The notes under the pieces: model-generated
Told to the model about the DNA's origin: nothing
The model's database searches: none
Seen by the model: only the letters and a program-made list of their open reading frames with translations
Shown: positions 51-15,266 of the stretch, in pieces
Layout: every line of letters begins with the position of its first letter
Position numbering within the stretch: position 1 is the first letter of the stretch
Origin: Symbiobacteriaceae bacterium
Lineage (GTDB): Bacteria; Bacillota_E; Symbiobacteriia; Symbiobacteriales; Symbiobacteriaceae
DNA: 15,778 nt
Direction of reading: 5' to 3'
Assembly (NCBI GenBank): GCA_027356675.1
Contig: DAHVXO010000320.1
Span: 1-15,778 of the forward strand
Made by a program: the position numbers and the translations under genes

Positions 51-138
51 CCATGAGCCCCGGCCAACAGGGGTAGGCGGGATCGACGGCGAAGTGGCGT
101 CAGTGCGACATACACCGCAGCAGTGGAGGGACTCCATC

Positions 139-609
139 TTGGATCAAGCCTTCGGAAATATGGCGGGCAAGCTCTGCCTCATCACAGGCGCTTCGTCGGG
201 AATCGGCAAAGAGGCAGGAGTGGGCCTCGCCCGCCTGGGCGCCACGTCGATGGCCTCGAGCAGACGTTTGCGTTGAACCACCTGGGCTACTTCCTGCTCA
301 CCCACCTGTTGCTGGACCGCTTGAAGGCGAGCGCACCCGCCCGCATCGTCAACGTGGCCTCGCAGGCGCAGAGGGGCGGCACACTCAACTTCAGCGACCT
401 GCAGGGCGAGAACGGCTACAGTGCCTTCCGTGCTTATGCCCAATCCAAGCTCGCCAACATCGTCTTCACCTACGAACTCGCCCGCCGTCTCGCTGGCAGC
501 GGTGTAACGGTAAATGCCGTTCACCCGGGTGCCGTGGCCACGAACTTCGGCGCCAGCGCCCTGGGCGGCTTCAACTGGGGGGTCAAGTTGGCCAAGCCCT
601 TCATGACTA
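139..609 (+). pseudogene. Decayed short-chain dehydrogenase/reductase (SDR)
   Basis: Remains of an NAD(P)-dependent short-chain dehydrogenase of the retinol-dehydrogenase-like type. A TTG at 139 with GGAGGG at 125-130 opens a frame containing the Rossmann motif TGASSGIG and GLARLGAT. At about 241-250 the reading jumps to another frame, which continues with DGLEQTFALNHLGYFLLTHL, then NVASQ, the catalytic-type YAQSKLAN (Y-x-x-x-K) and NAVHPGAV. In intact family members roughly 70 residues, including the NNAG motif, lie between these two parts. An internal deletion plus frameshift therefore explains the break. Homology ends near KPFMT at about 605, just where the opposite-strand phosphoesterase ends, so the C-terminus is missing too. 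It cannot make a working enzyme. Confidence 0.75.
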
Positions 610-1644
610 GGTCCGGGGGATCGTCACCGCCAGGTCATCCAGCCAGCGTCCCGCTTCGTGATCACGGGCCCGCAGGACCGCGCGGTCTGACCAGACCTCG
701 AGGACCCGGCTCTGGCTCGCCGACCGGTCGATGCGCCCTGGTGGGGCCGCACCGGCAGCCGTGACATACTGGTAGCAGGTCGAACCGAGCGCCGCGAACA
801 GCGTGCGCCGTTGCCAGTCCACCTGACCCGCCAACTCCAGCCGATAGTGCGTATGACCTGAGAGCCAGAGGCGAATCTGCGGGTTCCGCCGCCAGATTGC
901 CCGCAGCTCAGCAGCCTGTCCGCTTCCCGCGAAGCCGTCGTCGGCCCAAGTGCCGGCGACGGTTTCCTGTAACGGCTGATGCAGCGAGACGATCGTGAAG
1001 CGGTCCCGGTGTTCGGTAAGGACCCGCTCGAACCAGCGCAACTGCTCCGGGGTGATCCAGGCCCAATCGGGGTTGCGTGGCGCACTCTTGTACTGTTCGT
1101 CCGCGAGCATTACGAAGTGAAGGCCCCCGTGGACGTGATTGCAGTACGTCTCCGGCAGGCCAAACGCCTCCCGGAAGCGGCGGCGGCACTCCAAGTCCGA
1201 GGCGGCGGCAGCGTAGAACTCGTGGTTGCCGGCGCTCACGAGGAGACGGTCGCCGATGCCGCCTCGGCGCACCAGATCGCCAAAGGCTGCATACTCACCG
1301 GGAAGACCGTGGTCCGTGACGTCGCCGTCCACAATCCACAGGTCGGGCTGAAACTGCTGTAAATCCACCAGCGCCTGTCCGATCTTCGCGTTGATTGTGC
1401 GGGCGAAGTACCCGTCAGCAGGCTGGGTGTGCGTATCGGAAAGAAGGGCGATCACGAGAGGGCGCTCTGGGTTGGCGTCGGTTCTGGCGCCAGGTTCCGG
1501 CAATGGCAGCGGGTCCGCCGCTCCGACCTGTGCCGCCTGCGCCTCTCCAGGCAACCCCGGACCCCCCGCCCTCCGCCCCCACCCCAGGACAACCCCCGCC
1601 ACCACCGTTGTGCCAAGGGCCAGGAACTGTCGGCGCGTCGCCAC
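607..1644 (-). CDS. Tat-exported calcineurin-like metallophosphoesterase
   Basis: Predicted metal-dependent phosphoesterase of 345 residues, likely exported. The GTG at 1644 is preferred because AGAGAGGG lies just upstream and because it places a twin-arginine signal at the very N-terminus: RRQFLAL at residues 4-10, then a hydrophobic stretch to about 21 and a proline/alanine-rich linker. The binuclear metal-site motifs follow in order: D70-T-H72, G107-D108, G139-N140-H141-E142, then SLHQP and GHTH near the C-terminus. A longer frame reaches 1809, but it would bury the Tat signal and has no better ribosome site. The substrate cannot be told from the sequence; the family includes phosphodiesterases, nucleotidases and acid phosphatases. 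A 7-bp hairpin (CCGACCC/GGGTCGG) lies in the leader near 1673-1691. The gene lies downstream of the ArfA-like gene and may receive read-through. Confidence 0.85.
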   Translation of the reverse strand: MATRRQFLALGTTVVAGVVLGWGRRAGGPGLPGEAQAAQVGAADPLPLPEPGARTDANPERPLVIALLSDTHTQPADGYFARTINAKIGQALVDLQQFQPDLWIVDGDVTDHGLPGEYAAFGDLVRRGGIGDRLLVSAGNHEFYAAAASDLECRRRFREAFGLPETYCNHVHGGLHFVMLADEQYKSAPRNPDWAWITPEQLRWFERVLTEHRDRFTIVSLHQPLQETVAGTWADDGFAGSGQAAELRAIWRRNPQIRLWLSGHTHYRLELAGQVDWQRRTLFAALGSTCYQYVTAAGAAPPGRIDRSASQSRVLEVWSDRAVLRARDHEAGRWLDDLAVTIPRT

Positions 1645-1742: not shown

Positions 1743-1964
1743 TCACCTCAGGGCTGACCAGAAGAAACGGCTCCGATCTGCAGACCTGTTGCCCAACAGT
1801 CCCCCCCAAAAAAACAGACCGCCGGCATGTGGCTCCGATCCCTTCTGGGGATGCTTGCCCTGCCGGCGGTATGCGCCCTTGCCCTTCTTCGGCTTCTCAA
1901 CCATGTGCCACTTGCTCCGCATATGCCCCAGCCCGGGCGGTCCGGCGGCCCGTTTCTTCTTCAC
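1743..1964 (-). CDS. ArfA/BrfA-like ribosome-rescue factor, terminator inside ORF
   Basis: Small basic protein, 73 codons from a GTG at 1964, with GGAGG nine bases upstream. Residues 22-38 read VEKPKKGKGAYRRQGKH. From memory, E. coli ArfA has VEKNKKGKGSYMRKGKH at the equivalent place, the stretch that enters the empty mRNA channel of stalled ribosomes and, with a release factor, frees them. An intrinsic terminator lies inside the reading frame: arms at 1870-1861 and 1827-1818, then seven T (1814-1808) over codons 50-52. Most transcripts would then end without a stop codon and encode about 50-52 residues. This matches the known arfA/brfA logic, where the truncated product is made and tmRNA removes it while trans-translation works. 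Read-through gives the full 73 residues with a less conserved tail. The family call rests on one short motif plus this architecture, so ArfA versus BrfA versus an independent analogue is open. Confidence 0.72.
   Translation of the reverse strand: MKKKRAAGPPGLGHMRSKWHMVEKPKKGKGAYRRQGKHPQKGSEPHAGGLFFWGGLLGNRSADRSRFFWSALR
1808..1870 (-). terminator. Intrinsic terminator within the ArfA-like ORF
   Basis: On the minus strand ACCGCCGGCA (1870-1861) pairs perfectly with TGCCGGCGGT (1827-1818). The 33-nt interval can form its own inner stem, ATCCC with GGGAT. The 3' arm is followed by CTG and seven T (1814-1808). The hairpin encodes residues around YRRQ to HAGG of the small protein, so termination removes the stop codon. 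Confidence 0.75.
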
Positions 1965-1985
1965 CTGACATCGCCTCCACCGACC

Positions 1986-1994
1986 ATTATAGCA
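1986..1994 (-). promoter_or_regulatory. Extended -10 promoter for the ArfA-like gene
   Basis: Minus-strand TGCTATAAT is a full consensus extended -10. It overlaps the TAA stop of the yaiI/yqxD gene at 1989-1987. No good -35 is visible 17 bases upstream, which is tolerable for an extended -10. The expected start near 1980 leaves a very short leader carrying GGAGG. Confidence 0.5.
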
Positions 1995-2427
1995 CGGGAT
2001 GCAACAGCTTGCGCAGCGCGCCCACGAACGCCTCGTCATCCGCCACCGACCGCCGCTTCGGCCCGGGCAGGCGTACCCCGCCCCGGCGCAACCGCGCGTG
2101 CAAGGCCCGCTGCGCCAGCCGCCCATCCATCTCATCGTCTGTGAAGATGTGCCCCCAGGGACTCACAGCCCGTGCCCCCTTCGCCAGCGCCAGGGCAGCC
2201 AGCCCCCAGTCCTGGGTCACCACCACATCGCCCCGGACGGTGCGGTTAATCAGGGCCATATCAGCGGCCTGCGGCTCCGGCCCGACCATGACGTGCTCCG
2301 ACCCCTCTGCCGCCGCGATGTCGTGCCGGAACGAGGAGACCGTCACCACGCTCACACCCGCCTGCGCACTGAGGCGCCGGATCTCCGCCAACACGGGGCA
2401 GGCGTCGGCATCCACCAGCACTCGCAT
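1987..2427 (-). CDS. YaiI/YqxD family (UPF0178, DUF188) protein
   Basis: A 146-residue protein of the conserved UPF0178 family. Its hallmark N-terminus MRVLVDADACPV is present, followed by VVTVSSFRHD, the acidic stretch GPEPQAADMALIN and VVTQDWGLAALAL. The family is thought to have a PIN/NYN-like fold with a cluster of aspartates, suggesting a metal-dependent nuclease, but no activity is established to my knowledge. I chose the ATG at 2427 because family members begin here and AAGGGAG lies about eight bases upstream; the frame stays open to 2544 but that extension resembles nothing known. The C-terminal part is arginine-rich (LRRGGVRLPGPKRRS). The next gene on the strand is the ArfA-like gene, whose promoter overlaps this stop codon. 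Confidence 0.85.
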   Translation of the reverse strand: MRVLVDADACPVLAEIRRLSAQAGVSVVTVSSFRHDIAAAEGSEHVMVGPEPQAADMALINRTVRGDVVVTQDWGLAALALAKGARAVSPWGHIFTDDEMDGRLAQRALHARLRRGGVRLPGPKRRSVADDEAFVGALRKLLHPVL

Positions 2428-6049: not shown

Positions 6050-6415
6050 CTATGCCTCCGACGGTTCTTCTTCGTCGTCTGTCTCCGCAATTTCGGACGC
6101 CGTTGGCTTGGTGTACAGCAGTCCCGACCCTTCGGCCCAGCTGCGCCATGCCTCGATGGTACCGAAGCGTCTGAAGCCATAAGACTTTTGGTAGTACGTC
6201 TGATCGAACATGTTTTCGACGTACGGCAGCGTCAGCCCCGTAATCTGTACCAGCTCATCGCCCGTCATGGGCAGCCCTTTTTCCAGCAGGTGAGTGTTCA
6301 ACGCCCGCCACACCATCAGCGCAGGCGTATGCGTAGTGCTTGTGCCCAGGGCGTACGAAGTCGCGAACAGGACCTGTCGTGTGGGCTCCTGCCGAGCAGT
6401 CCCGGCTTTGGACAT
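6050..6415 (-). CDS. Protein of unknown function, 121 aa
   Basis: I do not recognise this family. It is a soluble-looking protein of 121 residues starting at ATG 6415 with GGAGGG nine bases upstream. The N-terminal 15 residues are charged and probably flexible (MSKAGTARQEPTRQ). The middle is a helical region with TPALMVWRALNTHLLEKGLPMTGDELVQIT, a pattern that could be a helix-turn-helix or a small regulatory fold. An aromatic-rich segment (MFDQTYYQKSYGFRRFG) follows, and the end is strongly acidic (ETDDEEEPSEA). There is no signal peptide or membrane segment. It stands alone, converging with the glutaredoxin gene and divergent from the phosphomutase gene 186 bases away. Its codon use is similar to its neighbours, so I take it as a real gene. 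Confidence 0.7.
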   Translation of the reverse strand: MSKAGTARQEPTRQVLFATSYALGTSTTHTPALMVWRALNTHLLEKGLPMTGDELVQITGLTLPYVENMFDQTYYQKSYGFRRFGTIEAWRSWAEGSGLLYTKPTASEIAETDDEEEPSEA

Positions 6416-9534: not shown

Positions 9535-10469
9535 CAGACGAAGAGCGGCTCGCAGCATTCATGGCGCGCATCGAGCGCGGCGAGAAGATCGAGGCCTCGG
9601 ACTGGATGCCTGCGCAGTATCGGGTCACCCTGGTCAAGTTCATGCAAATGCACGCCTTCTCCGAGATCATGGGCGCCCTGCCGGAGAAGGAATGGGTTCC
9701 CCGGGCCCCAACCCTGGCCCGCAAGCTCTCGCTCATGGCCAAGGTGCAAGATGAGATGGGCCACGGTCAGCTCATCCTCCGCATCACCGAGGACCTGGCG
9801 GCCCCTCTGGGCAAGACCCGGGAGGATCTGGTGGCGGATCTCTTTACTGGTCAGGCCAAGTTCCACAACGTCTTTCACATGCCGGCGCCCACCTGGGCGG
9901 ACTGCGGCGTCATCGGCTGGCTGGTGGACGGCGCGGCCGTCGTCTCCCAGGCGGCTCTGCTGGATTCCAGCTACGGCCCTTACGCCCGGGTGCTCCAGCG
10001 GGTCTGCGCGGAGGAGGGCTTCCACATCTAGCATGGGGAGTCCATCTGCCTCGCCCTGGCGGAGGGCACCGTGGTCCAACGGCAGATGCTCCAGGAGGCC
10101 CTGAACCGCTGGTGGGAATCGCTTTTGCTCTTCTTCGGGCCCGCCGAGACCACCAGTGCCTCGGCCACGGTCCTCATGAAGTACCGCTTCCGCATCAAGA
10201 CCAATGAGGAGCTGCGCCAGAAGTTCTTCACCAAGTACGTGCCGCGCATCTGGTCCCTGGGGCTGACGGTGCCTGACCCGGACTTCCGTTGGAACGAGGC
10301 CACACAGCTCTGGGAGTACACGCCGGCGGACTGGAGCAAGCTGGGGCTCATCGCCAAGAACCAGGGCCCACTGTCGCAGTACCGGCTGGGCCTGCGGCGC
10401 ATGTCCTACGAACAGACCCGGTGGGTGCGCGAGGCGCTGCTCGGCCGCAACCCCGCCGGCGTGGCCTAG
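9531..10469 (+). pseudogene. paaA: paaA, phenylacetyl-CoA epoxidase alpha subunit, with in-frame TAG
   Basis: Catalytic subunit of the diiron 1,2-phenylacetyl-CoA epoxidase, which adds oxygen across the ring of phenylacetyl-CoA. The 313-codon frame gives the usual length (about 310). Diiron ligands are recognisable: E45, E75-x-x-H78 (QDEMGHGQ), the carboxylate D133 and E162-x-x-H165 (EEGFH). However codon 167 is TAG (10029-10031), two residues after H165: EEGFHI, stop, HGESICLAL. Conservation resumes at once in the same frame and continues to TAG at 10467, and relatives have a basic residue near this point, so AAG to TAG would explain it. A 166-residue product would lack the C-terminal half and the complex would probably fail. 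Suppression or a sequence error is possible; no selenocysteine-like element applies to TAG. The gene overlaps tetR by ATGA and precedes paaB by 16 bases. Confidence 0.82.
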
Positions 10470-13307: not shown

Positions 13308-13343
13308 AAAAAAACAGGGGTAGCCCCGCGCCGGGGGCTACCC
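13308..13343 (-). terminator. Intrinsic terminator of the SPFH (hflK-hflC-like) operon
   Basis: The inverted repeat at 13318-13327 and 13334-13343 (GGGTAGCCCC with GGGGCTACCC) is followed on the minus strand by TG and seven T at 13314-13308. On the plus strand it is followed only by TTT, so it may also weakly end the RidA-Nudix transcript. Confidence 0.88.
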
Positions 13344-13365
13344 TTTCATCCATTACCGCATTGGG

Positions 13366-14250
13366 CTAGCGTCCCCGTTGGAGAGTCTCGTACAGTGGAT
13401 TGCCCGGGCCGAGGAACACCTTGGTCCCCTCCGGCAGGTTCGTCAACGCCTTCGTGGCTTCCAATTGCTGATAGAGGGCCGGGTCGGGCACTGCACTGCG
13501 CAGGATCTGCAGGGCCGCGGCGTCAGCCTCGCCGCGGCGCTTGCCATCGTACTCGTTGGCTTCGCCGGCGATCTCGCCGGCCTTCTTGGTGGTTCTGGCA
13601 TTGATCTCGGCGACCTGGGCCCGTGCCTGCGCGGTAATCTGCTCCGCCAGTGCGCTGACGGCCTGGACCTGAGACTTCAGGGCAGCCTCCTTGGCGCTGG
13701 GTTGCAGGTCCACCTCGGCTAGACGGATTTCCTTGACCTCGATGCCAAACTGGGACAGCTTCTTGTTCGTGCGTACGATGGTCTCCTTGAAGATGGACTC
13801 TGCCTCGGACGAGCCCTTCCTGGTAACACCGACCTTGATCGCTTGCGAGTCAAGGCCCCGCAAGGCTTCCTTTACATCGCTGTAGGCGATGTTATCGACC
13901 TGCCGGGTGCCCGGGCTCGGATCTGTGGTGGCGAAGGCTTTCCAGTATAATTCCGGGTCGGAGATGACCCATGGGATGGCAAAGTTGACGTCGAACTGCA
14001 CACCGTCGACGCTGGCGACATGGGATTTATCCGAGAGATAGGGGAAGGATGCCCTGGTGATACTCACCAGGTGGTTGATGCCAGGCACGGTGACATAGCG
14101 TCCGGGCGTCAGGTCCTTACTCAGGATCTTGCCGCCGGAGCTCACGCGCAGCCCCACGGAGTTCGGCTCGATTACGTTTGTGAATGCTGCGAAACCAATC
14201 AGGCCGATGAAAAGGAAGCCGGCGAGCATAGGACCGAGAAACTTGTTCAT
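13366..14250 (-). CDS. SPFH/Band 7 protein, HflC-like
   Basis: Membrane-anchored SPFH protein of 294 residues, near HflC (about 330). One N-terminal transmembrane segment (about 6-24, GPMLAGFLFIGLIGFAAF) precedes the Band 7 domain, which shows EPNSVGLRVSSGGK, LTPGRYVTVPG and DVNFAIPWVI. A long charged helix follows (about 180-250, alanine/glutamate-rich with AEQITAQARAQVAEINARTT), the coiled coil typical of SPFH oligomers. In E. coli HflK and HflC form a cage around the FtsH protease; whether this pair does so is inference. The upstream gene on the strand is a second SPFH protein 29 bases away, giving the HflK-HflC order. The start ATG 14250 is preceded by AGAAGGAGCG. The operon ends in a strong terminator after this stop. 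Confidence 0.85.
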   Translation of the reverse strand: MNKFLGPMLAGFLFIGLIGFAAFTNVIEPNSVGLRVSSGGKILSKDLTPGRYVTVPGINHLVSITRASFPYLSDKSHVASVDGVQFDVNFAIPWVISDPELYWKAFATTDPSPGTRQVDNIAYSDVKEALRGLDSQAIKVGVTRKGSSEAESIFKETIVRTNKKLSQFGIEVKEIRLAEVDLQPSAKEAALKSQVQAVSALAEQITAQARAQVAEINARTTKKAGEIAGEANEYDGKRRGEADAAALQILRSAVPDPALYQQLEATKALTNLPEGTKVFLGPGNPLYETLQRGR

Positions 14251-14279
14251 GATGAGCGCTCCTTCTGGCCAAGTAGCAG

Positions 14280-15266
14280 TTAATTGTTCATGGGAAGGTA
14301 CTTGACCGTAGAACCGTCCTCGCGCATCAGGTAAATCTGGATGCCCTTCTTCCCGATCAAACTCTCCAGGGCCTCCCAGTAGAGTTTCTTGCTGGCCAGA
14401 TCGGGGTTGGCCTTGTATTGCTCGTACCAGGAGCTGAACTGTTTGGCTGAGCCGTTGGCAGAGCCCACGGTCAGACTGTAGTACCTGTCCGCTTCGGCCT
14501 TCTTGCTGGTGGCATCGGCTGTGGCGTTGGCTACCCCGGTTTCATATTTGGTCTGGGCCGTCTTGATGTCCGCTTCGGCCTGGGACCTGGCCGTGGCGAC
14601 CTTGTTGTAGGATTCCATGACGGAGGACGGCGCTTTGACGTTCTGCAGGTTCACCGACTGCACCTTGGCGCCGAGATCCATATCCTTCAGAAAAATGTCT
14701 ACGTTCGTCTTGACCTCGTCCTGGATGTCGCCCTGGGTCTTGGACTGGAGCCCTTCGTCCAGGGTGTGCTCACCGAAGCCCCGAATCAGCGAACTGGCTA
14801 CGATGGAACGGATCAGTTCGTTCCGGTTCTTGGACCCGTAGACCCACTTGAACGGGTCGGTGGGGATGAGGTTGACCACGGCTTCGGCATGGATGTAGAA
14901 GCTATCCTTGGTGAGGTCCTCAGCTTCGGTGGGAAGCTCCCTGTACTGGGGCGGCTTACCGTCTGCCCCCGCGGTCTGGGTCCGAAAACCGAACTCGACC
15001 GAGTCGGGGCGGTTCATATTGACCTTCACGACAGTAGAGGCGGCGAAGCCCCTGGGGTTGGCGTAGTGCCAACCGGGGTCGGAAACCACCTTGGTCTTGC
15101 CGGATTGACTGACCACTGCGGCCGTGCCGGCGGGCAGCGTGTAGATGCCTGTGGACAGCCAGCCCAGGAGCGCTACCACGGCCAGTGCTGTGGTCGCCTT
15201 GCCAATCAGTGGGCCCTGGGCCGCGACCTGCTTGGCGTAGTCGTCGGGTGCGAATCGATCGGACAT
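14280..15266 (-). CDS. SPFH/Band 7 protein, HflK-like
   Basis: Membrane SPFH protein of 328 residues, first in the pair. A short charged cytoplasmic head (MSDRFAPDDYAKQVAAQG) leads to a transmembrane segment at about 25-42 (TALAVVALLGWLSTGIYTLP). The Band 7 domain follows with AGTAAVVSQSGKTKVVSDPGWHY, which is a usual membrane-proximal strand pattern, then DSFYIHAEAVVNLIP. A glutamate/alanine-rich helix (about 215-265, SQAEADIKTAQTKYETGVA) is the oligomerisation coiled coil. The glycine- and proline-rich N-terminus of E. coli HflK is absent. ATG 15266 has AAGGAGGA about seven bases upstream. The gene has a long structured 5' leader. The assignment to HflK rather than a general prohibitin rests on gene order and partner. 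Confidence 0.85.
   Translation of the reverse strand: MSDRFAPDDYAKQVAAQGPLIGKATTALAVVALLGWLSTGIYTLPAGTAAVVSQSGKTKVVSDPGWHYANPRGFAASTVVKVNMNRPDSVEFGFRTQTAGADGKPPQYRELPTEAEDLTKDSFYIHAEAVVNLIPTDPFKWVYGSKNRNELIRSIVASSLIRGFGEHTLDEGLQSKTQGDIQDEVKTNVDIFLKDMDLGAKVQSVNLQNVKAPSSVMESYNKVATARSQAEADIKTAQTKYETGVANATADATSKKAEADRYYSLTVGSANGSAKQFSSWYEQYKANPDLASKKLYWEALESLIGKKGIQIYLMREDGSTVKYLPMNN

What the first reader, a model, noticed from the sequence alone, without database searches (positions are those of the whole stretch)
1743..1994. Hidden ArfA/BrfA-like rescue gene that encodes its own non-stop mRNA
A 73-codon ORF with a KKGKGAY-RRQGKH core matches the mRNA-channel segment of ArfA. Inside the frame is a perfect 10-bp terminator stem followed by seven T, so typical transcripts would end around codons 50-52 without a stop. 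This is the regulatory trick known for E. coli arfA and B. subtilis brfA. ArfA proper is mainly described in Proteobacteria, so a high-GC Firmicutes version would widen the distribution or represent convergent evolution.
Basis: partly seen in the sequence, partly recalled or inferred. Interest (0 to 1): 0.88.

Follow-up and report, generated by a model that had tools for sequence, protein, structure and literature searches.

The report
ArfA-like rescue gene with internal terminator
A tiny, easily overlooked bacterial gene appears to make a protein that frees stuck ribosomes, and a transcription stop signal sits inside the gene, so its own message would usually lack a stop codon; this self-sensing trick is known from E. 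coli and Bacillus, and this copy appears to be a divergent form from outside the Proteobacteria.

Summary
On the minus strand, a 73-codon GTG ORF (1964-1743) carries EKPKKGKGAYRRQGKH, the mRNA-channel module of ArfA. It passes Pfam PF03889 (26.9 bits, cut-off 25.5), and the six PDB chains it matches at E up to 1 are all named ArfA. A 10-bp stem plus T7 lies in frame at codons 31-53. None of 20,000 synonymous recodings gave a stem this long before T6 or more. An extended -10 (TGCTATAAT), unique in the window, and GGAGG precede the start. Two relatives keep the core and AGGLF; the three sequences then diverge abruptly at the T-tract. Best reading: an ArfA-like, RF-dependent back-up rescue factor made from its own non-stop mRNA and held down by trans-translation. 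It is not simply ArfA: the N-terminal part that engages RF2 in ArfA is not recognisable, whereas all 27 ArfAs found in 299 proteobacterial genomes match further N-terminal. The host looks non-proteobacterial by its phospho-sugar mutase; two genes lean to Bacillota, but the lineage is unproven. Termination and rescue are inferred, not shown.

The parts
1743..1964 (-). ArfA-like ORF, 73 codons, GTG start, TGA stop
   Evidence: PF03889 above cut-off; codon usage fits frame 1 only over codons 1-50 (0.27 bits/codon, other five frames negative)
1851..1889 (-). core KKGKGAYRRQGKH (codons 26-38): ArfA mRNA-channel module
1815..1873 (-). in-frame hairpin: perfect 10-bp stem 1870-1861/1827-1818, extendable at the base to the T-tract across one mismatch, nested helices in the apex
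1808..1814 (-). T7 tract (codons 51-53); predicted mRNA 3' end without a stop codon
1743..1807 (-). 3' remainder of the ORF after the T-tract; not conserved in the two relatives
   Evidence: alignment; GC by codon position of codons 51-73 (23 codons only) unlike that of genes
1986..1994 (-). extended -10 promoter element TGCTATAAT overlapping the yaiI stop codon
   Evidence: only match in the window, 0.04 expected
1974..1978 (-). Shine-Dalgarno GGAGG, 9 nt before GTG
   Evidence: sequence
1987..2427 (-). yaiI/yqxD-like gene (DUF188), upstream neighbour, same strand
   Evidence: Pfam PF02639 120.9 bits; start at 2427 is my choice within the ORF 1987-2544
607..1644 (-). metallophosphoesterase gene downstream (Tat-like signal by eye); would be insulated by the terminator
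   Evidence: Pfam PF00149 on 607-1656; start at 1644 is my choice

Best explanation
The gene encodes a short basic ArfA-like protein whose C-terminal half (EKPKKGKGAYRRQGKH plus the following residues) would enter the empty mRNA channel of a ribosome stalled at a message end, letting a release factor (most likely RF2) free the peptide. Transcription, from a promoter at the yaiI stop codon or from yaiI, normally ends in the U-tract at codons 51-53, so the message has no stop codon. While trans-translation works, the roughly 51-residue product is tagged and destroyed. When trans-translation is saturated or lost, untagged product is released, partly by itself, and takes over rescue. Shown by sequence: the ORF, core motif, hairpin plus T7, promoter-like element and ribosome-binding site, and the conservation break at the T-tract. 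Inferred: termination in vivo, tagging, RF recruitment, rescue.
For: PF03889 above cut-off in the window protein and in P0003. The six PDB chains matched at E up to 1 are all named Alternative ribosome-rescue factor A. The hairpin plus U-tract is not a by-product of the protein (0 of 20,000) or of base composition (0 of 1000). The hflC-like gene of the window is followed by a terminator of the same style: a 10-bp stem, TG, then T7. Relatives P0003 (44 of 51 residues identical up to F51, my count on the alignment) and P0004 (28 of 31) share AYRRQ and AGGLF, the codons that form the two arms and the T-tract here, and match the window no further; the listed proteins end 3 and 7 residues past F51. 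The T-tract lies 13 codons after KH. In BrfA the KH is at 49-50 and the product is about 62 residues (PMC6881298, passages). E. coli arfA carries its hairpin in the ORF (PMC3989581, passages). A unique extended -10 and an SD precede the start.
Against: The ArfA match covers only 17 of 44 Pfam positions and is barely over the cut-off. The N-terminal minidomain (Leu19, Leu24, Phe25 in E. coli, PMC5378476, passages) is not recognisable, so the RF2 link is a guess. The nucleotide sequences of the relatives could not be obtained, so conservation of the hairpin itself is untested, and whether their proteins end at a stop codon or at a contig end is not shown. AGG may also be kept for protein reasons (several ArfAs have WEASG nearby, and P0003 and P0004 have GWEP.AGG). 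Only the window's protein and two relatives were found among 5.8 billion proteins. The homopolymers and broken genes elsewhere in the contig allow for sequence errors near the tract.
Confidence: 0.77

Rival explanations
1. Same protein, but the non-stop message is made mainly by RNase III cutting the long hairpin rather than by termination, as described for E. coli.
For: The hairpin is long, with mismatches and nested helices; the E. coli route is described in PMC3989581 (passages).
Against: T7 directly after the helix, and the same style at the hflC-like gene terminator, point to termination.
Confidence: 0.12
2. The hairpin is merely the terminator of yaiI, and the ORF over it is either not translated or a relic.
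For: yaiI ends 22 nt upstream on the same strand; no short-loop terminator was found in 1500-2700.
Against: Family match; codon usage in frame; protein conserved in two relatives; own SD and extended -10.
Confidence: 0.06
3. A proteobacterial arfA brought in by recent transfer or by a chimeric contig.
For: Core wording VEKPKKGKGAY is also found in Pseudoalteromonas.
Against: No recognisable N-terminal similarity to any of 27 ArfAs in 299 proteobacterial genomes; profile A2 matches only the core there, in 11 of 299; codon usage of codons 1-50 fits the window.
Confidence: 0.05

Closest known systems
ArfA (YhdL; PF03889), E. coli and other gamma/beta-proteobacteria
   Same: Small basic protein; KKGKGxY...KH module; hairpin inside the ORF giving a stop-less message; aromatic and hydrophobic residues after the hairpin in the window's ORF, where E. 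coli ArfA has a hydrophobic tail (PMC3989581, passages).
   Different: N-terminal minidomain with the F next to the core (27 of 27 proteobacterial ArfAs) not recognisable; T-tract 13 codons after KH against 22-23 in four of the five proteobacterial cases measured and 12 in the fifth; host looks non-proteobacterial.
BrfA (YqkK), Bacillus subtilis
   Same: Intrinsic terminator inside the ORF; Lys-His motif; end of product about 12-13 codons after KH (PMC6881298, passages).
   Different: No sequence match found; by that paper BrfA has N-terminal helices and shares a Lys-His motif with ArfA despite lack of sequence homology, whereas this protein has the full ArfA core.
ArfT (Francisella and others) and ArfB
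   Same: Back-up rescue of non-stop ribosomes.
   Different: ArfB carries its own GGQ, which is absent here by sequence; ArfT was not compared.

Membership tests
ArfA (PF03889) | Scores above Pfam's gathering score | tested here: met
   26.9 against 25.5 bits, and 26.0 for relative P0003; positions 27-43 and 27-44 of 44 only
ArfA (PF03889) | C-terminal KGKG...KH mRNA-channel module | tested here: met
ArfA (PF03889) | N-terminal minidomain that engages RF2 (Ala18, Leu19, Leu24, Phe25) | tested here: not met
   No significant HMMER profile match before residue 22; 27 of 27 proteobacterial ArfAs have the F, read by eye. A very diverged version with a 3-residue insertion (M/L15 near the F place in one alignment) cannot be excluded; hhalign aligned residues 10-50 at 96% overall
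ArfA (PF03889) | Made from a non-stop message via a hairpin inside the ORF | tested here: met
   By sequence only. Not universal in ArfAs: a stem plus T4 or more was detected in 10 of 27 with my simple scan
ArfA (PF03889) | Peptide release through RF2 | not testable with these tools
   -
BrfA | Sequence relation to B. subtilis BrfA | tested here: inconclusive
   No BrfA chain among the seven PDB hits at E up to 10; the BrfA sequence itself was not fetched
BrfA | Intrinsic terminator within the coding region | tested here: met
   By sequence only; an analogy of regulation, not evidence of descent
ArfB | GGQ catalytic motif | tested here: not met
   No GGQ in the 73 residues
ArfT | Charged helix recruiting RF1/RF2 | not tested
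   -

The most novel reading that the evidence does not exclude
A non-proteobacterial lineage has an RF-dependent rescue factor that joins ArfA's ribosome-sensing C-terminal module to an unrelated N-terminal part tuned to its own release factor (perhaps a different RF). It independently keeps the non-stop-mRNA control loop, so the module and the regulatory trick are older, more mobile or more often reinvented than the published distribution says.
Probability: 0.4. Interest if true: 0.8.

Novelty: new variant of a known kind. Interest (0 to 1): 0.66.

Why it matters
A survey of 15,259 genomes calls ArfA restricted to gamma-proteobacteria, some beta-proteobacteria and ten species of the B. subtilis group (PMC11633108, section 5; its table gives 5 of 2,633 Firmicutes and 1 of 3,213 Actinobacteriota), and the BrfA authors argue that sequence similarity alone cannot find further factors (PMC6881298, passages). 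A short ArfA-core protein elsewhere, with its terminator inside the ORF, would link the two known cases. It also gives a search recipe: a KGKG-type small ORF with an in-frame terminator. It suggests that the ribosome-facing half of such factors is conserved while the RF-facing half turns over.

Tried and rejected
Short-loop terminator scan of 1500-2700: 0 hits, the apex here being long. Rfam at gathering scores: none in the window. NCBIfam and PADLOC on the ORF: none. Phage records by tblastn at E up to 1: none; plasmids: one weak hit in an unrelated gene, E 0.6; viral contigs: 67 pattern matches, 0 relatives. Ribosomal eL33 as the source of the basic stretch: E 0.75, rejected. The 130-aa ATG ORF over the same frame (1743-2135) runs back into yaiI and was rejected as the start. 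The third protein search added nothing. Taxonomy by plasmid-collection hits is coarse; phyla of the listed genera are from my own knowledge. No structure was predicted: ArfA's N-terminus is described as unstructured, or disordered in one of two states (PMC6881298 and PMC5378476, passages), so a lone model would say little. First extraction of proteobacterial ORFs did not turn the minus-strand loci and was redone for all 27. In one search, of the ten loci L009-L018, L012 gave no motif, the start of L010 was not resolved and L009 repeats L001; these three were left out of the nine-row yardstick.

Full report
What is there. The window's minus strand has yaiI/yqxD (DUF188), ending at 1987. Then come an extended -10 element TGCTATAAT at 1994-1986, overlapping the yaiI stop and unique in the window (0.04 expected), GGAGG at 1978-1974, and a GTG start at 1964. 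The two-hexamer promoter scan found nothing in 1500-2700. The ORF has 73 codons and ends at 1743. Over codons 1-50 its codon usage fits the window's genes in this frame only (0.27 bits per codon; the other five frames are negative), and GC by position is 0.68/0.50/0.80 against 0.67/0.47/0.82 for nine reference ORFs of the window. Codons 51-73 are unlike genes (0.43/0.61/0.65; 23 codons only).

Family. Pfam gives ArfA, PF03889, 26.9 bits against a cut-off of 25.5, residues 22-38 on profile 27-43 of 44. phmmer against PDB sequences finds six distinct sequences at E up to 1, all named Alternative ribosome-rescue factor A; the aligned part of the best equals the E. coli protein. A profile of the window protein and P0003 finds the same six plus a chance eL33 match at E up to 10. 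NCBIfam has nothing.

Relatives. In 5.8 billion proteins three searches found only the window's own protein and two relatives: P0003 (54 aa, source 'jgi') and P0004 (38 aa, source 'lgn', which I take to be Logan; it begins at the internal Met). P0003 equals the window at 44 of 51 residues up to F51, P0004 at 28 of 31 (counted). PKKGKGAYRRQGKH and AGGLF are identical in all three. After F51 the window shares nothing with either; the two relatives share only Leu52. The window continues for 22 residues; the listed P0003 and P0004 end after 3 and 7, and the answers do not say whether at a stop codon or a contig end. In the window, AYRRQ and (H)AGGL are the codons of the two hairpin arms, and F51-F52 the T-tract. 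The break in conservation therefore sits where the message is predicted to end. I could not read the relatives' DNA, so whether they have the hairpin is open; several ArfAs also carry WEASG in this place, so protein-level constraint could explain part of AGG.

Hairpin. The 10-bp stem plus T7 is real. Given the protein and the window's codon usage, 0 of 20,000 recodings reach it, 9 of 20,000 reach 9 bp, and 2741 of 20,000 have T6 or more at all. In 1000 dinucleotide shuffles of the window, 0 have a 10-bp stem plus T6 or more, 2 have 9 bp, 6 have 8 bp and 16 have 7 bp. The window itself has two such sites, both on the minus strand. T7 occurs only twice; the other one follows a 10-bp stem and TG just after the hflC-like gene (that fold as a whole is not unusual against shuffles, z -0.54), a plausible ordinary terminator of the same organism. 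The T-tract begins 13 codons after KH; for BrfA, KH is at 49-50 and the natural product about 62 residues (PMC6881298, passages).

ArfA in Proteobacteria as yardstick. PF03889 rings in 27 of 299 whole genomes of the phylum of a Pseudoalteromonas, and in 1 of 14 control genomes (E. coli). All 27 matches begin at profile position 13 or earlier; the window's begins at 27. All 27 carry, by eye, the F that in E. coli is Phe25. Phe25 with Leu19 and Leu24 binds the RF2 switch loop (PMC5378476, passages). The window has PPGLGHMRSKWHMVEKP there. A profile of the window group matches 11 of 299 genomes, always from position 21-22 onward. With a simple scan (stem score 8 or more, then T4 or more) 10 of 27 proteobacterial ORFs have an internal hairpin, so the feature is common but not universal there; the Pseudoalteromonas genes have none by these scans.

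Whose genome. No whole genome is held. The phospho-sugar mutase of the window matches Bacillota best: the first 13 of 15 listed rows (479 records matched), up to 48%. Among 60 Pseudomonadota genomes one has a strong match (263 bits, 39%) and the other 59 reach at most about 65 bits. YaiI: 7 of 7 records are Bacillota. Others are neutral or point elsewhere: UppP best in Rubrobacter and Deinococcus (about 42 and 40%), PaaA in Deinococcus (56%), HflK under 30% in the 12 of 54 records listed. GC is 64.6%. I conclude: probably not proteobacterial, Bacillota or a neighbour likely, unproven. In the GTDB species set, 120 stretches matched one of six 8-residue patterns and six encode a relative, all Pseudoalteromonas over residues 22-38 only; that scan reaches close relatives only.

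How it would work and what is known. E. coli ArfA and B. subtilis BrfA are both made from stop-less messages and are kept low by trans-translation (PMC3989581 and PMC6881298, passages; review PMC8012679, passages). The anatomy here fits the same loop. The C-terminal half is ArfA's; the RF-facing half is not recognisable. I therefore call it ArfA-like, works-like-ArfA, and do not file it as ArfA proper. In print: the listings of my searches and the passages I read show no such variant, but that library lacks most subscription papers; PMC6514570 (passages) discusses ArfB and ArfT distribution and hardly ArfA.

Shown by sequence: ORF, core, hairpin, T7, promoter-like element, SD, conservation break. 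Inferred: termination, tagging, RF recruitment, rescue, host lineage. Confidence in the best explanation was lowered from 0.78 to 0.77 on re-checking, because the relatives' ends are not shown to be stop codons.

Noticed in passing
window 10030-10032 (+): In-frame TAG inside paaA (GFHI*HGE): PaaA profile positions 1-152 match before it and 170-289 after it. A nonsense change or a sequence error; TAG also ends the metallophosphoesterase ORF at 607-609.
   Followed up: partly
window 94-640 (+): Short-chain dehydrogenase-like stretch (recognised by eye) spread over two frames, apparently with a piece missing in the middle and a cut end: remnant or misassembly.
   Followed up: no
window 13308-13352 (-): Terminator-like site (10-bp stem, TG, T7) after the hflC-like gene, same style as the one inside the ArfA-like ORF.
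   Followed up: partly
window 13366-15266 (-): Pair of adjacent genes, one matching HflK below the curated cut-off and the other HflC only weakly; HflK identity under 30% in the 12 of 54 plasmid-collection records listed.
   Followed up: no
window 6050-6415 (-): 121-residue ORF without NCBIfam or PADLOC match; not run against Pfam.
   Followed up: no
L031 and L032 (unnamed proteobacterial genomes): arfA genes with very strong in-frame hairpins (19 positions with one mismatch, and 18 with none, then T5) at codon 78, only a few codons before the stop.
   Followed up: no
L037-L047 (unnamed proteobacterial genomes): A compact ArfA class of 50-64 residues (AQPLFRSRQE....KGKGSYRREA); none of the 11 shows the KH, and 1 of 11 has an internal hairpin by my scan.
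   Followed up: partly
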